Shown here piece after piece: positions 9,639-63,171 of a stretch of DNA of 64,000 nt. The notes beneath the pieces are model-generated. The model had not been told where the DNA came from. It did not search any database and saw nothing but the letters and a program-made list of their open reading frames with translations. The stretch's first letter is position 1. Each line of letters opens with the position of its first letter. This stretch comes from Hyphomonadaceae bacterium (lineage in GTDB: Bacteria > Pseudomonadota > Alphaproteobacteria > Caulobacterales > Aquidulcibacteraceae). The translations under genes were made by a program, and so were the position numbers. Location: contig JAIELK010000006.1 of assembly GCA_019753175.1 (NCBI GenBank), positions 124,001-188,000 of the forward strand, read 5' to 3'.

Positions 9639-9707
9639 GTCCGGCTTATTGACCGTACCGCGCCGCGGACGCAAGAGTTCGCGCCTTGTTCTGCTCGGGA
9701 GAGCGCC

Positions 9708-10337
9708 ATGGCCGACCATCTCGTCTTCTACACCAACCCGATGTCACGTGGACGGATCGTCCGCTGGATGCTGGAGGAAGTCGGCCAACCTTACGAAACC
9801 GTGGTGCTCGACTATGGAACCACGATGAAGGGGGCGGACTATCTGGCTATGAACCCGATGGGCAAGGTGCCGGCGATCCGGCACGATGATGCCATCGTCA
9901 CCGAAACGGCCGCGATCTGCGCCTATCTCGCCGACGCCTTTCCGGCTACGGGCCTGGCCCCTCCGCCCGGCAAATCGCGCGCGTCATACTACCGTTGGAT
10001 GTTCTTCGCGGCGGGGCCGGTCGAGGCCGCAAGCACCAATGGCGCGATGGGGTTTGTCGTGCCGCCCGAACGCAAAGCCATGGCCGGTTATGGCTCGCTT
10101 ACCGAAGTCGTGGACACGCTCGAGCGCGCCGTCAGCGCCAGCAACTATGTTGCCGGCGATCAATTCACCGCCGCCGACGTCTATGTCGGTTCGCAAATCG
10201 GCTGGGGCATGCAGTTCGGCTGGCTCGAGAAACGCCCGGCGTTCGAAGCCTACTGGTCGCGCATCGCCGGCCGGCCCGCGGCGGCCCGCGCGCGCGAACT
10301 CGACGATGCGCTTATTGCTGCGCAGAAGAAGGATTAG
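9708..10337 (+). CDS. Glutathione S-transferase family protein
   Basis: A 209-residue GST with an N-terminal thioredoxin-like domain ([26 protein letters not shown], then [29 protein letters not shown], carrying the cis-Pro and the glutathione gamma-Glu contact ET/S) and an all-helical C-terminal domain ([20 protein letters not shown]). Ser12-13 near the SRGR motif is the likely catalytic region. The ATG at 9708 follows GGAGAGCGCC. The gene diverges from the frameshifted ArsC-like gene and converges on the permease, overlapping its 3' end by 26 bases. Substrate unknown. Confidence 0.92.
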
Positions 10338-58967: not shown

Positions 58968-59107
58968 GGCCGCGAGCTTGGCCCCGACCGACGTAAAGGC
59001 GCAACCCCTGTCCTCAATTGCACGTGTACCCGCCCGCGAGACCTCACATCGGGGTCGGCGTTAGTGTATACCCTCACGTGACAGGCCCGGAGGGCGGGAG
59101 CGCAGCG

Positions 59108-61294
59108 ATGCGATCGGGACAGCACGTCAGGGCATGCGTGAGTTACGCTGCGGAAGATGCCGCAGCGGCTCGCCGCCTCGTGCAACGCATGAAGGGCGTG
59201 ATCGCGCCGAACGGCCAACGCCTCACCGGCGTCTCGCTCGCTACGGAAATGACACCCCATGCGCTATCGCAAGCGTTGGCCGAGGCGGATTGGCTGATTG
59301 TCTGCTGTAGCCCCGCCGCCTTCGCTTCGGAACGGGTGAACGCCGAAATCGACGAATACCTGCGCCTTAACGCCGGCTCGCGGCTGCTGCTCGTGCTGCT
59401 ACGGGGCGATCCACGGGAGTCGTTGCCAGCGCGGGTGCGCGGCCGCGAACCGCTGGCCGCGGACTTCCGCTCGGTCGGCGATGGCCAGGAATTGGGGGCG
59501 CTCAAGGTCGCAGCGGTGCTACTCGGCGCCGAACCCGGTGCGCTGATCGATGCGCGCGCCGGGGCGCAGCGCATCGGCGCTTCGGCGGCCTGGTTCATGA
59601 TTGCAGCGCTTGCACTCGCCACCATGGGCGCGAGCGTGTTTGCCGCTCACTCGGCGCGGCAGCGCGACAGCGCAGAGACGCTCGCGCGTGATGCGCTGGA
59701 TGTCGCGGCGGATGCTGTGGTTCAGGCCGATGATCTGTCGCTGCGTCTGGCCGAACTCGATCGCGCATCACCCGATGTGTTGGGCGCCGCTGAAGCGCGC
59801 TTCGAGCGGTTGTTCGAGCAAGGCGGCGACGCCCCCGCACTGATGCGCCAACGGGCGCACTTGCTGGTGCGTTTCGCCGACATTCATGAACGTCGTGGCG
59901 ATCGCGAGCGCAGCGGCGAACGCGCGCGCGCAGCGGTGGTCGCTTTCGACGCGCTTCCGGAGTCCGAACGGCAGACATTGGCCTTCGTCCGCGCCTTGTC
60001 GCTTGCGAGCAGCGGCGCGGACGGCGAGCAGGCGCTTGCATACGCTCAACGTGCGGTCGACGCGGCCCGCACCGTGCGCGAAGAGGACGTGCGCTTGCGC
60101 AATGCCGCACTGGCGCAGGCGCTTGGCCGCTTGGGGGAGCTGCAGCAAGCGGCGGGCCGACGGTCGGAGGCGCTCGCGCTCTACGCAGAAGCCGCGCCGG
60201 CGCTTGAAGCCGTGCTCGAACACTCGCCGCCGGGCGATGAGGCCGCCATCCAGGGCCTCGCCGGGGCGCTCCGCCGTCTTGGCGACGCGCAAGTCGAGGC
60301 CGGCGACCTTGACGGCGCCCGCGTGTCTTACACGCGCACGGTCGCCTTGGCGCGCGCGCGGCTCGATCTTGATCCGCGCAGCGCCGCCGCACGCGCCGAA
60401 CTCGGCTCTGCACTGTCGAAGCTGGGCCGCGCCTTCGTCGACGCCGGCAACCCGGCGGCGGCTGTCGAAGCGCTGCAAGAGAGCTTGGCGCTGGCCCGGC
60501 AGCAGGCGGCTGCGGCGCCGGACGACGCGGCGGCGCAAACCCTGTTTACGGAACGCCTCATCTACACCGCGCGCATGCTGGGCGGCGTTGGTCGCGCCGG
60601 GCCGGCCTTGATGGAGGAAGCGCTGACGGCCGCCCGCGCCGATCTCGACCGCCGCGCCACGCCGGAAACACGCACGGCGCTGTCGGATCTGTTGGCCGTC
60701 GACGCCGTCCGCCTGCAGCGCGCGCGCAACTATGCGGACGCGCGCACGGCGTGGCGCGAAGTGGTTCAGTTGCGGCGCACGCTCGCCCGCGGCGCTCCGA
60801 GCGCGAGCGTGGCCGAGGCGCAGGAACAGATCGGCGCGACGAGCCTCGCACTCAACGAACTGCCAGCAGCGACGGCCGCGTACGCCGAGTCGGTTCGTCA
60901 GCATCGTGGCGTCCTGGCGGCTGCGCAGAACGATCGCACTGCTCAGGCCGCGCTCGCGGAGGCGCTGCATCGGCTCGCCCAAGCGCGGCTGCGAGAAGAG
61001 AACGAAGCCAGCGCGCGCGGTGCGTTCGCCGAGGCGGCGCGGCTGCGCTTGGCCCTGGCGCAATCCGATCCGGCCGACGCGGCGATCGCCTATGCCGCCG
61101 CGGACTCCCTCAATCGCCTAGCGCAAACCCAACTTGAAGCGTCCCCGGCGCGCGCCAGGGAAAATTTGGAGACAGCGCGCGAATTGCTCAGCCGCATCGC
61201 CGAAGCTCATCCCACCGAACGCCGCTACGCCACCGCGCTGCGCCGCACCAACGCGGCGCTCAGCCAATTGCCAAGCGAAGGCGCGCAGCAATAG
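59108..61294 (+). CDS. TIR-like domain, membrane and TPR-repeat protein
   Basis: A 728-residue protein with three parts. Residues 1-140 are a TIR-like domain: VRACVSYAAEDAAAARRLVQRMKG, then ALAEADWLIVCCSPAAFASERVNAEIDEYL, with Glu80 at the catalytic-Glu position of TIR NADases. One membrane span follows (about 160-180, WFMIAALALATMGASVFAA). Residues 190-728 are tetratricopeptide-like helical repeats rich in Ala, Arg and Glu. The start is MRSGQHVRACVSY at 59108. Bacterial TIR proteins include NAD-cleaving defence effectors and scaffolds; the TPR part would then be periplasmic. Function is inferred only from architecture. Confidence 0.85.
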   Translation: MRSGQHVRACVSYAAEDAAAARRLVQRMKGVIAPNGQRLTGVSLATEMTPHALSQALAEADWLIVCCSPAAFASERVNAEIDEYLRLNAGSRLLLVLLRGDPRESLPARVRGREPLAADFRSVGDGQELGALKVAAVLLGAEPGALIDARAGAQRIGASAAWFMIAALALATMGASVFAAHSARQRDSAETLARDALDVAADAVVQADDLSLRLAELDRASPDVLGAAEARFERLFEQGGDAPALMRQRAHLLVRFADIHERRGDRERSGERARAAVVAFDALPESERQTLAFVRALSLASSGADGEQALAYAQRAVDAARTVREEDVRLRNAALAQALGRLGELQQAAGRRSEALALYAEAAPALEAVLEHSPPGDEAAIQGLAGALRRLGDAQVEAGDLDGARVSYTRTVALARARLDLDPRSAAARAELGSALSKLGRAFVDAGNPAAAVEALQESLALARQQAAAAPDDAAAQTLFTERLIYTARMLGGVGRAGPALMEEALTAARADLDRRATPETRTALSDLLAVDAVRLQRARNYADARTAWREVVQLRRTLARGAPSASVAEAQEQIGATSLALNELPAATAAYAESVRQHRGVLAAAQNDRTAQAALAEALHRLAQARLREENEASARGAFAEAARLRLALAQSDPADAAIAYAAADSLNRLAQTQLEASPARARENLETARELLSRIAEAHPTERRYATALRRTNAALSQLPSEGAQQ

Positions 61295-61301
61295 CCGGGA
61301 C

Positions 61302-61667
61302 TCAGGCGGCCCAAACCAGACGCGGCCCCTTGTCTTCAGCATCGACATCGACGCCGCCATTCATCACCGGTCGCAGCGCTTGCACGATATCGGCTTCGAC
61401 ATATTCGCGCGCGTCGCGCTCATCTTGTTCGAGCACCAGCACGTGCGTCGCGCCCAGAAGTTGCGCCTCCGGCCATTGCTCGTGGGTCGCCAACCGCTTC
61501 GACAAATTGCCCGTCCGCGATACAAACAACGGCGTCCAGCCCCGTCCGCCCAGGCCGGGGCGGGCGAAAGCGTACACCGCCGGCGCCTCGCCAAACTGGT
61601 CATGCGGCCGATGCACGCGAAACCGGTGCAGCCGCCCCGAAACGCCGCGGAAAATTGCCTCTGACAT
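61302..61667 (-). CDS. GIY-YIG-like nuclease-fold protein under SOS boxes
   Basis: A 121-residue protein with a GIY-YIG-like core: PAVYAFARPGLGGRGWTPLFVSRTGNLSKRLATHEQWPEAQLLGATHVLVLEQDERDAREYVEADIVQALRPVMN. The AVYAFAR and FVSRTG segments correspond to the GIY and YIG strands with the catalytic-type Arg, and EADIVQALRPVMN resembles the C-terminal E-x-x-L-I-x-x-x-x-P-x-x-N motif. The Tyr of the second motif is Phe, so nuclease activity is not certain. ATG 61667 is the start; a promoter with two LexA boxes lies directly upstream. Confidence 0.75.
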   Translation of the reverse strand: MSEAIFRGVSGRLHRFRVHRPHDQFGEAPAVYAFARPGLGGRGWTPLFVSRTGNLSKRLATHEQWPEAQLLGATHVLVLEQDERDAREYVEADIVQALRPVMNGGVDVDAEDKGPRLVWAA

Positions 61668-61683
61668 GCGTCGCGCCCCTCGT

Positions 61684-61735
61684 GTTCCTTGTATGTTCCG
61701 GATCAATACTCCAGATTTTTGTTCTTGTAAAGTTC
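61684..61735 (-). promoter_or_regulatory. Promoter with two LexA (SOS) boxes
   Basis: Two exact GTTC-N7-GTTC boxes, at 61684-61698 (GTTC-CTTGTAT-GTTC) and 61721-61735 (GTTC-TTGTAAA-GTTC), match the SOS operator of alphaproteobacteria. On the minus strand they frame a promoter TTTACA (61731-61726), 17-base spacer, TATTGA (61708-61703). Box 2 covers the -35 and box 1 the expected start of transcription near 61696. The GIY-YIG-like gene starts 17 bases beyond box 1. The Fur-like gene on the plus strand starts at 61778 and might also be affected. Confidence 0.8.
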
Positions 61736-61777
61736 CGGAGCCAACGGGTCTTTCATGAGACGCGGGAGCCTGCAATC

Positions 61778-62245
61778 ATGGTCTGCATGTCACCTCACCA
61801 CGGCGCGCATGATCGCACTGCCCACATTGTCGAGGCGGAACGCATCTGCGCCGCGGCGGGGGAAACACTGACGCCGTTGCGCCAGCGCGTCCTTGAACTG
61901 CTGATCGACCAGCCGGGCCCCGCCAAGGCGTATGACCTGCTGCCGCTGATCGACGCCGACAAGCAATCCAAGCCCCCCACCGTTTATCGGGCGCTCGACT
62001 TTCTGGTCCGCATGGGCCTTGCCCACCGGATCGAGAGCCTCAACGCATTTGTGGCGTGCGACATCGGCGCCTGCGCGCGCTCGACCATCTTTCTCATTTG
62101 CGAAAAGTGCGGCGCGGCGGAAGAATTCGACGCCGGCCATGCGCTGGTCGATCTCTCAGAGGCCGCCAGCCGCGACGGCTTCTCCATCCGCCGCACCATG
62201 ATCGAGGCCTCGGGCCTCTGCGCCGCCTGCCAGCGCGCCGCGTGA
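61778..62245 (+). CDS. Fur family regulator, Zur-like
   Basis: A 155-residue metalloregulator: LTPLRQRVLELLIDQPGPAKAYDLLPLI, the HTH with KQSKPPTVYRALDFLVRMGLAHRIES, and a dimer domain with LICEKCGAAEEFD and GLCAACQRAA. The two CxxC pairs are the structural zinc site. A structure like LTPLRQRVL...YRALDFL...HRIESLNAFVAC is the Zur pattern, so a zinc-uptake repressor is likely. GTG of the next gene overlaps its stop. SOS boxes lie in the promoter region 43-94 bases upstream. Confidence 0.85.
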   Translation: MVCMSPHHGAHDRTAHIVEAERICAAAGETLTPLRQRVLELLIDQPGPAKAYDLLPLIDADKQSKPPTVYRALDFLVRMGLAHRIESLNAFVACDIGACARSTIFLICEKCGAAEEFDAGHALVDLSEAASRDGFSIRRTMIEASGLCAACQRAA

Positions 62246-63171
62246 GTCACCCCGCACCCCTCCCCGCGCCGCTGTACCAAGGCAGCGTCAACACCTGGGA
62301 GTGCGACGAAGGGGGACATCTCAACGTGCGTTTCCATCTCGAGCGCGCAATGATCGGCCTCGCGCACATGGCGAACGCGCTTGGTATGCCGCGCGCGTTC
62401 ACGCCCGCGGCGGGCGCGACGCTCGTCCCCTATGACGTGCACATCCGTTTCCTGAAAGAAGCGCGCCCGGGCGCGCCCCTGGTCATGCATGGCGGGGTGG
62501 TGCAGTTGAACGATTGCGACGCGGTTCTGTGCCTCGATATGCGCCACGCCGACGGCGCGCCGGCAAGCTGCTTCACCGTCAAAGCGGCGCACGCCGAGGC
62601 GCGCGACTTTCGTTCCTTCCCGTGGTCTGCGCGCAGCCGCGCCGCCGCGAAGATAATCGCGTGCACGCTGCCCGCGCACGCGAAGCCGCGTTCCATCGAC
62701 GTGAGCCGCGCGCCCAGCAACGCAAGCCGCGACGGCGCAATCGGATTGGGGGCGGTCCGCATCGGCGCCAGCCTGGTCTCACCCGACCAATGCGACGCCT
62801 TCGGGCGCTTGCGCACCGAACACTTCTTCGGCCGCGCTTCGGATTCCGTTCCCAATCTGCTCGCGAGCTGGCGCAAGGAGGCTGGCGAGGCCGCGGGTGC
62901 GGCGCCCGCCGGCGCGGTGGTCGAAGCAAGGCTCGTCATTCGGCGCTGGCCGCGCGCAGGCGAACTGATCGAACTCCACTCAGGCGTGGCGGAAGTCGCA
63001 GAAAAAACTCAGCGGCTAGTGCATTGGATGTGCGACCCTGAAGCCGGCCATTGCTGGGCAAGTCTTGAAGCCGTCGCGCTCACCTTCGACATCGCCACGC
63101 GCAAGGCGATCACGCCAAGCGAGGACGTTCGCGCGCGCATTCGCAAGCGTGCGATTGGAATCGCTGTCTAG
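62242..63171 (+). CDS. Double-hotdog thioesterase-like protein
   Basis: A 309-residue protein with two hotdog modules. Module 1 has VNTWECDEGGHLNVRFHLERAMIGLAHMANALG and VPYDVHIRFLKEARPGAPLVMHGGVVQLN; module 2 begins VSPDQCDAFGRLRTEHFFGRASDSVPNLLASW and has VVEARLVIRRWPRAGELIELHSGVAEV. The H-x-N-V-R and DxxxRLR segments lie where acyl-CoA thioesterases hold catalytic residues. The GTG start overlaps the Fur-like gene, so the pair may be one operon. Substrate unknown; from the fold an acyl-CoA is likely. Confidence 0.82.
   Translation: MSHPAPLPAPLYQGSVNTWECDEGGHLNVRFHLERAMIGLAHMANALGMPRAFTPAAGATLVPYDVHIRFLKEARPGAPLVMHGGVVQLNDCDAVLCLDMRHADGAPASCFTVKAAHAEARDFRSFPWSARSRAAAKIIACTLPAHAKPRSIDVSRAPSNASRDGAIGLGAVRIGASLVSPDQCDAFGRLRTEHFFGRASDSVPNLLASWRKEAGEAAGAAPAGAVVEARLVIRRWPRAGELIELHSGVAEVAEKTQRLVHWMCDPEAGHCWASLEAVALTFDIATRKAITPSEDVRARIRKRAIGIAV

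What the first reader, a model, noticed from the sequence alone, without database searches (positions are those of the whole stretch)
61302..61778. Two perfect SOS boxes in the promoter of a GIY-YIG-like nuclease gene
Sequence: two exact GTTC-N7-GTTC motifs at 61684-61698 and 61721-61735 bracket a minus-strand promoter (TTTACA, 17 bases, TATTGA), one on the -35 and one on the start site. The gene they control encodes a 121-residue GIY-YIG-like fold whose second motif has Phe for Tyr. Established: alphaproteobacterial LexA binds GTTC-N7-GTTC. Inference: a small nuclease-like protein is induced by DNA damage. The opposite gene is Zur-like, so zinc control and DNA damage may meet in this region.
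Basis: partly seen in the sequence, partly recalled or inferred. Interest (0 to 1): 0.75.

Follow-up and report, generated by a model that had tools for sequence, protein, structure and literature searches.

The report
SOS-controlled GIY-YIG-like gene beside zur
A small gene that looks switched by the bacterial DNA-damage repressor LexA makes a protein with the fold of a DNA-cutting enzyme but a damaged active site, and the switch is kept in two bacterial families even where the cutting residues are wholly gone, which points to a DNA-damage job other than cutting.

Summary
Two exact GTTC-N7-GTTC boxes (61684-61698, 61721-61735) bracket the minus-strand promoter of a 121-codon gene. By number alone the boxes are unremarkable, but 39 of 40 orthologues in the window's family keep both, while 0 of 10 and 0 of 20 paralogues and 0 of 30 homologues of a third family have one within 100 bp (one further third-family locus does). 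lexA carries the same box in the window's genome and in the 11 promoters parsed of 12 fetched. The model is a GIY-YIG domain nearest UvrC's (Z 10.1). The second motif reads F-[LIVM]-S-R in 38 of 39; the same Tyr-to-Phe change costs ANKLE1 3500-fold. New here: a second family of the order (86 of 96 genomes) has a homologue with paired boxes (32 of 33 loci read; the other has no upstream DNA) in which all catalytic residues are gone, in 3 of 30 loci beside the same zur-like gene. SOS control outlives catalysis, so I favour an SOS-induced pseudo-nuclease. The zinc link looks like mere adjacency. Binding, induction and function are untested.

The parts
61302..61667 (-). gene for a 121-aa GIY-YIG-fold protein (Tyr32, Arg58, His62, Glu91, Asn103 kept; Phe48 and Ser50 in place of the Tyr and Gly of YIG)
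61684..61698 (+). LexA-type box 1, GTTCCTTGTATGTTC, between the -10 and the ATG of the GIY-like gene
   Evidence: a box at this place in 40 of 40 orthologues
61721..61735 (+). LexA-type box 2, GTTCTTGTAAAGTTC, overlapping the -35
   Evidence: in 39 of 40 orthologues; its spacer begins TTTAC on the gene strand in 39 of 39
61726..61731 (-). -35 hexamer TTTACA inside box 2
   Evidence: read; conserved in the alignment
61703..61708 (-). -10 hexamer TATTGA, 17 bases from the -35
   Evidence: read; inference from sequence, no transcript data
61778..62245 (+). divergent Fur-family, Zur-like regulator gene (start may be 61787)
   Evidence: PF01475 27.9 bits, cut-off 23.1; NCBIfam Zur model 121.2 bits, below its cut-off 167; divergent neighbour in 34 of 40 orthologue loci
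62242..63171 (+). gene downstream of the Zur-like gene, used as a synteny marker (function not tested)

Best explanation
The gene belongs to the LexA (SOS) regulon. LexA on box 2 covers the -35 and on box 1 the stretch between -10 and ATG, shutting the promoter until RecA-stimulated LexA self-cleavage frees it. The product is a single GIY-YIG-fold domain akin to small standalone nucleases, with a damaged active site in this family (YIG to F-x-S) and no catalytic residue left in its counterpart in another family of the order. I propose that it works during the SOS response as a non-cutting, or hardly cutting, GIY-YIG-fold protein, for example by holding branched or damaged DNA or a repair partner. 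Shown by computation: boxes, their conservation, fold, residue losses. Inferred: LexA binding, induction, the non-catalytic role.
For: Both boxes in 39 of 40 orthologues, in 6 of the 7 genera that have the gene; none within 100 bp in 10, 20 and 30 paralogues or homologues. Same box on lexA, recA, an error-prone polymerase gene, ssb. Fold: UvrC N-domain E 9e-5 by profile, Z 10.1. F48 and S50 each in 38 of 39 orthologues; Tyr-to-Phe there costs ANKLE1 3500-fold and is the negative control in SLX1 (PMC10287932 section 22; PMC8287910 passages). Second family: 32 of 33 loci boxed, the 33rd without upstream DNA; a second, non-overlapping box (at most one arm mismatch) in all 32; none of the 33 has Tyr32, Arg58, His62, Glu91 or Asn103. 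Profile match to the window's family 98.3%; the Zur-like gene divergent next door in 3 of 30 loci; joint clade not rejected (p 0.525). Both groups look under purifying selection (median omega 0.16 and 0.22).
Against: In the window's family Tyr32, Arg58, His62, Glu91 and Asn103 are all but invariant, which is odd for a protein that never cuts. The free tree does not join the two boxed groups, so SOS control may have arisen twice, and the second group would then say little about the first. In the second family the Zur neighbour is present in only 3 of 30 loci, plus one 1.2 kb off, and the fold match of that group is weak (Foldseek E 1.1; Z 7.4). The exact pattern is not over-represented in the genome. 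No expression, binding or activity data.
Confidence: 0.6

Rival explanations
1. It is an active SOS-induced nuclease, in role like Cho of E. coli or Slx1: Tyr32 with His62 acts as general base, Glu91 and Asn103 hold the metal, and Phe48/Ser50 only alter rate or substrate.
For: Tyr32, Arg58, His62, Glu91 and Asn103 are each kept in 38 or 39 of 39 orthologues; in ANKLE1 the GIY Tyr plus His are the proposed base; R.Hpy188I has Lys at the YIG Tyr; five of 35 family members, not the window protein, hit the Cho model at E up to 0.1, best 1e-5.
Against: Tyr-to-Phe at this place costs ANKLE1 3500-fold and is the negative control in SLX1; the second family's homologues lost everything yet keep paired boxes.
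Confidence: 0.3
2. The boxes serve the divergent Zur-like gene, alone or jointly, so that DNA damage alters zinc control.
For: The boxes lie between the two genes, and the Zur-like gene is the divergent neighbour in 34 of 40 loci.
Against: Five orthologue loci (L029-L032, L037) keep both boxes with no Fur/Zur gene adjoining (Fur 2.2 kb off for L029); 26 of 30 second-family loci have none in the held DNA; the upper box holds the GIY-like gene's own -35.
Confidence: 0.07
3. The repeats are chance or the site of another regulator.
For: The exact pattern is not over-represented in the genome (66 against 117 for the reversed control) or clearly so in the window.
Against: Arms conserved while the rest of the intergenic DNA drifts; same box on the lexA promoters parsed; absent from the paralogues examined.
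Confidence: 0.03

Closest known systems
UvrC N-terminal GIY-YIG domain (PDB 1ycz, 1yd0-1yd6)
   Same: Fold (Z 10.1, 1.8 A over 80 residues); GIY Tyr, Arg, Glu and Asn positions
   Different: Single 121-aa protein; YIG Tyr is Phe, Gly is Ser; LexA-type boxes. The genome has a separate UvrC-size gene (689-aa frame)
Cho, SOS-induced excinuclease of E. coli
   Same: GIY-YIG domain under LexA (PMC3820734 passages)
   Different: No room for a further C-terminal domain; window protein has no NCBIfam match
[quoted passage not shown]
   Same: A GIY-YIG domain protein with evidence of LexA-type regulation (one passage of PMC8565304)
   Different: An exonuclease fusion, other phylum, other LexA motifs
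R.Hpy188I
   Same: GIY-YIG fold with a replaced YIG Tyr (passages of PMC2630997)
   Different: Lys, not Phe; a restriction enzyme
Caulobacter SOS regulon (GTTC-N7-GTTC)
   Same: Same box type (PMC12700426 section 8); it also induces Vsr-like nuclease genes (PMC12907096 passages)
   Different: There about 97% of SOS promoters carry a single box; here two are conserved

Membership tests
LexA (SOS) regulon, alphaproteobacterial type | exact GTTC-N7-GTTC at the promoter | tested here: met
LexA (SOS) regulon, alphaproteobacterial type | box conserved upstream of orthologues and not of paralogues | tested here: met
   39 of 40 both boxes; 0 of 10, 0 of 20, 0 of 30 controls within 100 bp
LexA (SOS) regulon, alphaproteobacterial type | a LexA in the genome that has the same box on its own gene | tested here: met
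   11 of 11 lexA promoters parsed, of 12 loci fetched
LexA (SOS) regulon, alphaproteobacterial type | LexA binding and induction by DNA damage | not testable with these tools
   needs footprint and transcript data
GIY-YIG superfamily (fold) | GIY-YIG domain fold | tested here: met
   pLDDT 89; UvrC rows at the top, though Foldseek's best E is 2.4e-3
GIY-YIG superfamily (fold) | Pfam PF01541 match over cut-off | tested here: not met
   0 families for the window protein at E up to 1; 3 of 35 relatives at E up to 0.1
GIY-YIG nuclease (active) | GIY Tyr, Arg, Glu, Asn | tested here: met
   Y32 38/39, R58 39/39, E91 39/39, N103 38/39
GIY-YIG nuclease (active) | YIG Tyr | tested here: not met
   Phe in 38 of 39, His in 1
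GIY-YIG nuclease (active) | DNA cleavage | not testable with these tools
   needs purified protein
Cho / UvrC | further domains C-terminal to GIY-YIG | tested here: not met
   the protein ends at residue 121; no Cho or UvrC model match for the window protein
Zur (neighbour gene) | NCBIfam Zur equivalog cut-off | tested here: not met
   121.2 bits against 167, though Zur is the only model listed at E up to 1e-10; Fur family met

The most novel reading that the evidence does not exclude
An SOS-induced pseudo-nuclease family: one zur-linked gene of an ancestor within the order, under paired LexA boxes, whose GIY-YIG fold was kept while its chemistry decayed stepwise (YIG lost in one family, everything lost in another), now acting without cutting in the DNA-damage response.
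Probability: 0.45. Interest if true: 0.7.

Novelty: new variant of a known kind. Interest (0 to 1): 0.6.

Why it matters
Many SOS genes have no known role. Here is one found in 86 of 96 genomes of one family and, by my count, 40 of 60 of another, under paired LexA-type boxes, with a recognisable ancestry and a clear prediction: the response needs the fold but not the cut. Homologues with a full, a partial and an absent active site, the last two under the same switch, give a clean comparison to ask what a nuclease fold does when it no longer cuts.

Tried and rejected
Rejected: chance boxes; control of zur as the boxes' purpose; membership of Cho/UvrC; a phage origin (no tblastn match in 50,697 phage records for the window protein or for L144's; only weak PHROG hits).

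Led nowhere or weak: boxes near two single distant relatives in other families (L144 at -34, L149 at -108) could not be tested for conservation, as no relative was found in their families (1 of 17 and 1 of 24 genomes, the query's own). Of the 75 loci scanned, 8 had a box within 250 bp: two are window-family orthologues (L143, L217), L144 and L216 are one gene, and the others are L149, L170, L211, L212. The free tree does not unite the two boxed groups, the AU test does not reject their union: orthology rests on synteny in 3-4 of 30 loci and is not proven. T4 EndoII, a plant Grx N-domain and R.Eco29kI also matched the fold.

Literature: the listings showed me no report of a LexA-controlled GIY-YIG gene of this kind in Alphaproteobacteria. 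I read section 8 of PMC12700426 and section 22 of PMC10287932, and only passages of these two and of PMC8565304, PMC12907096, PMC10688885, PMC2630997, PMC3820734, PMC8287910 and PMC1564403; no supplements, so published regulon tables may hold it under a locus tag.

Rows dropped or partial: L039 (gene in two frames) was left out, and its residues before position 31 come from the wrong frame; L040 (cut by the contig end) is out of the residue counts; L241 has no upstream DNA. The 33 second-family loci are the 30 best-scoring matches plus 3 I chose, not a random draw. In one search two sites appear twice (66 rows, 64 distinct); the window's other two were classed. In one search L298 was not parsed. 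L223-L229 were fetched and not analysed. The -15 box and the paired boxes were recounted.

Full report
What is there. The window (G000:C1:124001-188000) belongs to a Terricaulis-like alphaproteobacterium: relatives in the named collection are mostly labelled Hyphomonadaceae, Caulobacteraceae or plain Alphaproteobacteria, one Terricaulis sp., and Terricaulis is placed in Caulobacterales. At 61302-61667(-) lies a 121-codon gene. Two exact GTTC-N7-GTTC repeats sit upstream at 61684-61698 and 61721-61735. On the gene's strand the upper one reads GAACTTTACAAGAAC and holds the -35 TTTACA; 17 bases on is TATTGA; the lower box follows before the ATG.

Is it more than chance? By number alone, no: 4 exact boxes in the window against 1.9 in shuffles, and 66 in the genome against 117 for the reversed control. 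Of these 66, 22 lie outside called genes (my own simple gene caller, which% of the window coding). These include the upstream regions of recA, lexA, an error-prone polymerase gene, ssb (two boxes), an O6-methylguanine-DNA methyltransferase gene, rpoH and a PA0069-type radical SAM gene. So the motif marks known SOS genes in this very genome, which has one LexA over the family cut-off.

Conservation. Of 60 genomes of the family, 44 have some match. I count 40 as having the orthologue (loci L001-L040, 7 genera); the other matches are weaker paralogues. Both boxes are exact in 30 of 30 (L001-L030) and 9 of 10 (L031-L040); L038 keeps one. The gap between the two boxes is 16-22 bases, and the spacer of the upper box begins TTTAC on the gene strand in 39 of 39, that is, the -35 is built into the box. 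The rest of the intergenic DNA drifts. In 100-bp upstream stretches 39 of 39 orthologues have an exact box (L039 left out), against 0.14 loci in shuffles, 0 of 10 same-family paralogues, 0 of 20 canonical paralogues of the second family and 0 of 30 homologues of a third; one more third-family relative, L170, does have a box at -47. The gene looks under purifying selection: omega 0.03-0.15 in the five closest usable pairs, median 0.16 of 461 pairs (pairs are not independent).

The protein. Pfam and NCBIfam give nothing for it alone. A family profile reaches UvrC's N-terminal domain in the PDB at E 9e-5. The AlphaFold model (pLDDT 89) has nine UvrC chains and then R.Eco29kI as its first ten Foldseek rows (best E 2.4e-3), and UvrC at Z 10.1, T4 EndoII at 8.3 and R.Eco29kI at 6.7. 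It is a GIY-YIG domain. Against UvrC, Tyr32 is the GIY Tyr, Phe48 stands for the YIG Tyr (Y29 in T. maritima UvrC), Arg58 for Arg39, Glu91 for Glu76, Asn103 for Asn88 (numbers not printed are counted or recalled). Among 39 orthologues Phe48 and Ser50 are each in 38, Tyr32 in 38, Arg58 in 39, His62 in 38, Glu91 in 39, Asn103 in 38; L038 is the exception each time. Removing only the hydroxyl at the YIG Tyr costs human ANKLE1 3500-fold (PMC10287932 section 22); the same mutant is the negative control in yeast SLX1, whose authors call Lys in Hpy188I a rare exception at this place (passages of PMC8287910). So this family naturally carries what elsewhere is a crippling change. The standalone paralogue in the same genome (G000:C3:2773-3078) has a canonical YVG and no box in the held DNA.

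A second boxed family. Looking for boxes near distant relatives I met two in another family of the order (L211, L212). A search of that family found a homologue in 86 of 96 genomes. I read 33 loci: the 30 best matches and 3 others. In 32 an exact box lies just before the start codon, at -15 in 30 and -18 in 2; the 33rd has no upstream DNA. At -15 it reads GAACGGAGNNNGAAC and includes the ribosome-binding GGAG. All 32 have a second, non-overlapping box above it: in 21 with one arm mismatch at -43 to -46, in 11 exact at -51, nine of these with a third exact box at -40. lexA carries the exact box in 5 of 5 promoters parsed in that family, 5 of 5 in the window's family and 1 of 1 in a third (one of 12 loci not parsed). 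These proteins match the window's family by profile (98.3%, E 2e-14) and fold like UvrC's domain, less clearly (Z 7.4; Foldseek E 1.1). But in 33 of 33 Tyr32 is Val/Ala, Arg58 is Asp/Asn, His62 is hydrophobic, Glu91 is Val/Ala/Ile/Leu/Met and Asn103 is something else; Phe48 is Arg in 32. What both groups keep, with at most a stray exception, is Phe6, Gly8, Gly11, Phe16, Phe34, Ala35, Trp44, Ala68, Gly72, Ala73, Arg87, Asp93 and Pro100, a structural and perhaps binding surface, not the active site. They too look under purifying selection (median omega 0.22 of 64 pairs).

One gene or two? The divergent Fur/Zur-like gene is next door in 34 of 40 loci of the window's family and in 3 of 30 of the second, with a fourth 1.2 kb off; in those 3 the gene after it matches as well. 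That argues for one ancestral locus. The free tree does not join the groups; the AU test does not reject joining them (p 0.525). I lean to one origin but hold it open.

The zinc idea. The neighbour is Fur-family and Zur-like (121 bits, below the cut-off 167). Five loci where it does not adjoin (L029-L032, L037) keep both boxes; in the longer stretch of the genome of L029 a Fur gene lies 2.2 kb off, in those of the other four none is seen. The boxes belong to the GIY-like gene; I see no sign of a joint zinc and damage circuit, though LexA on the boxes could touch zur in passing.

Mechanism. Shown: boxes on the -35 and before the start codon, conserved and specific; GIY-YIG fold; loss of YIG here and of all catalytic residues in the second family. 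Inferred: LexA occupies both boxes, perhaps giving tighter shut-off than the single box of about 97% of Caulobacter SOS promoters (PMC12700426 section 8), and damage releases it. Inferred further: since SOS control is kept where chemistry is gone, the useful part is the fold, not the cut, most simply binding to DNA or to a repair partner. The rival, an active slow or specialised nuclease in the window's family, stays alive because five catalytic residues are kept there.

Verdict.

Noticed in passing
59018-61294 (+): Gene for a TIR-domain protein with TPR-like repeats (TIR_2 36.5 bits), convergent with the GIY-like gene; among the 33 loci a match was seen in two (L126, L129).
   Followed up: no
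9677-9691 (+): Another exact GTTC-N7-GTTC 16 bp before a gene starting at 9708; conservation not checked.
   Followed up: partly
L100 (G000:C22:26000-29200), boxes at 1540 and 1610: Two exact boxes 70 bp apart between ssb and a divergent gene; besides the window's pair, the only close pair among this genome's exact boxes outside called genes.
   Followed up: no
L082 (G000:C11) and L089 (G000:C13): Exact boxes upstream of rpoH (136 bp) and 2 bp before a PA0069-family radical SAM gene, candidate SOS genes.
   Followed up: no
L144 (G409:C23:579165-579488): Distant standalone GIY-YIG gene with intact YIG in another alphaproteobacterial family has an exact, AT-rich box at -34; no relatives found in its family to compare.
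   Followed up: partly
L170 (G359:C18:39643-39906): Third-family relative with an exact box at -47, unlike the 30 third-family loci.
   Followed up: no
L220-L222, L248, L253-L255, L258, L259 upstream: GAAC-N7-GAAC-N7-GAAC triplets at -51 to -26: two overlapping exact boxes sharing an arm, plus the box at the start codon.
   Followed up: partly
L039 (G053:C1:51547-51925): Orthologue in this genome lies in two frames yet keeps both boxes; sequencing error or decay not distinguished.
   Followed up: no
G1074: One second-family genome has two LexA-type genes, both over the family cut-off.
   Followed up: no
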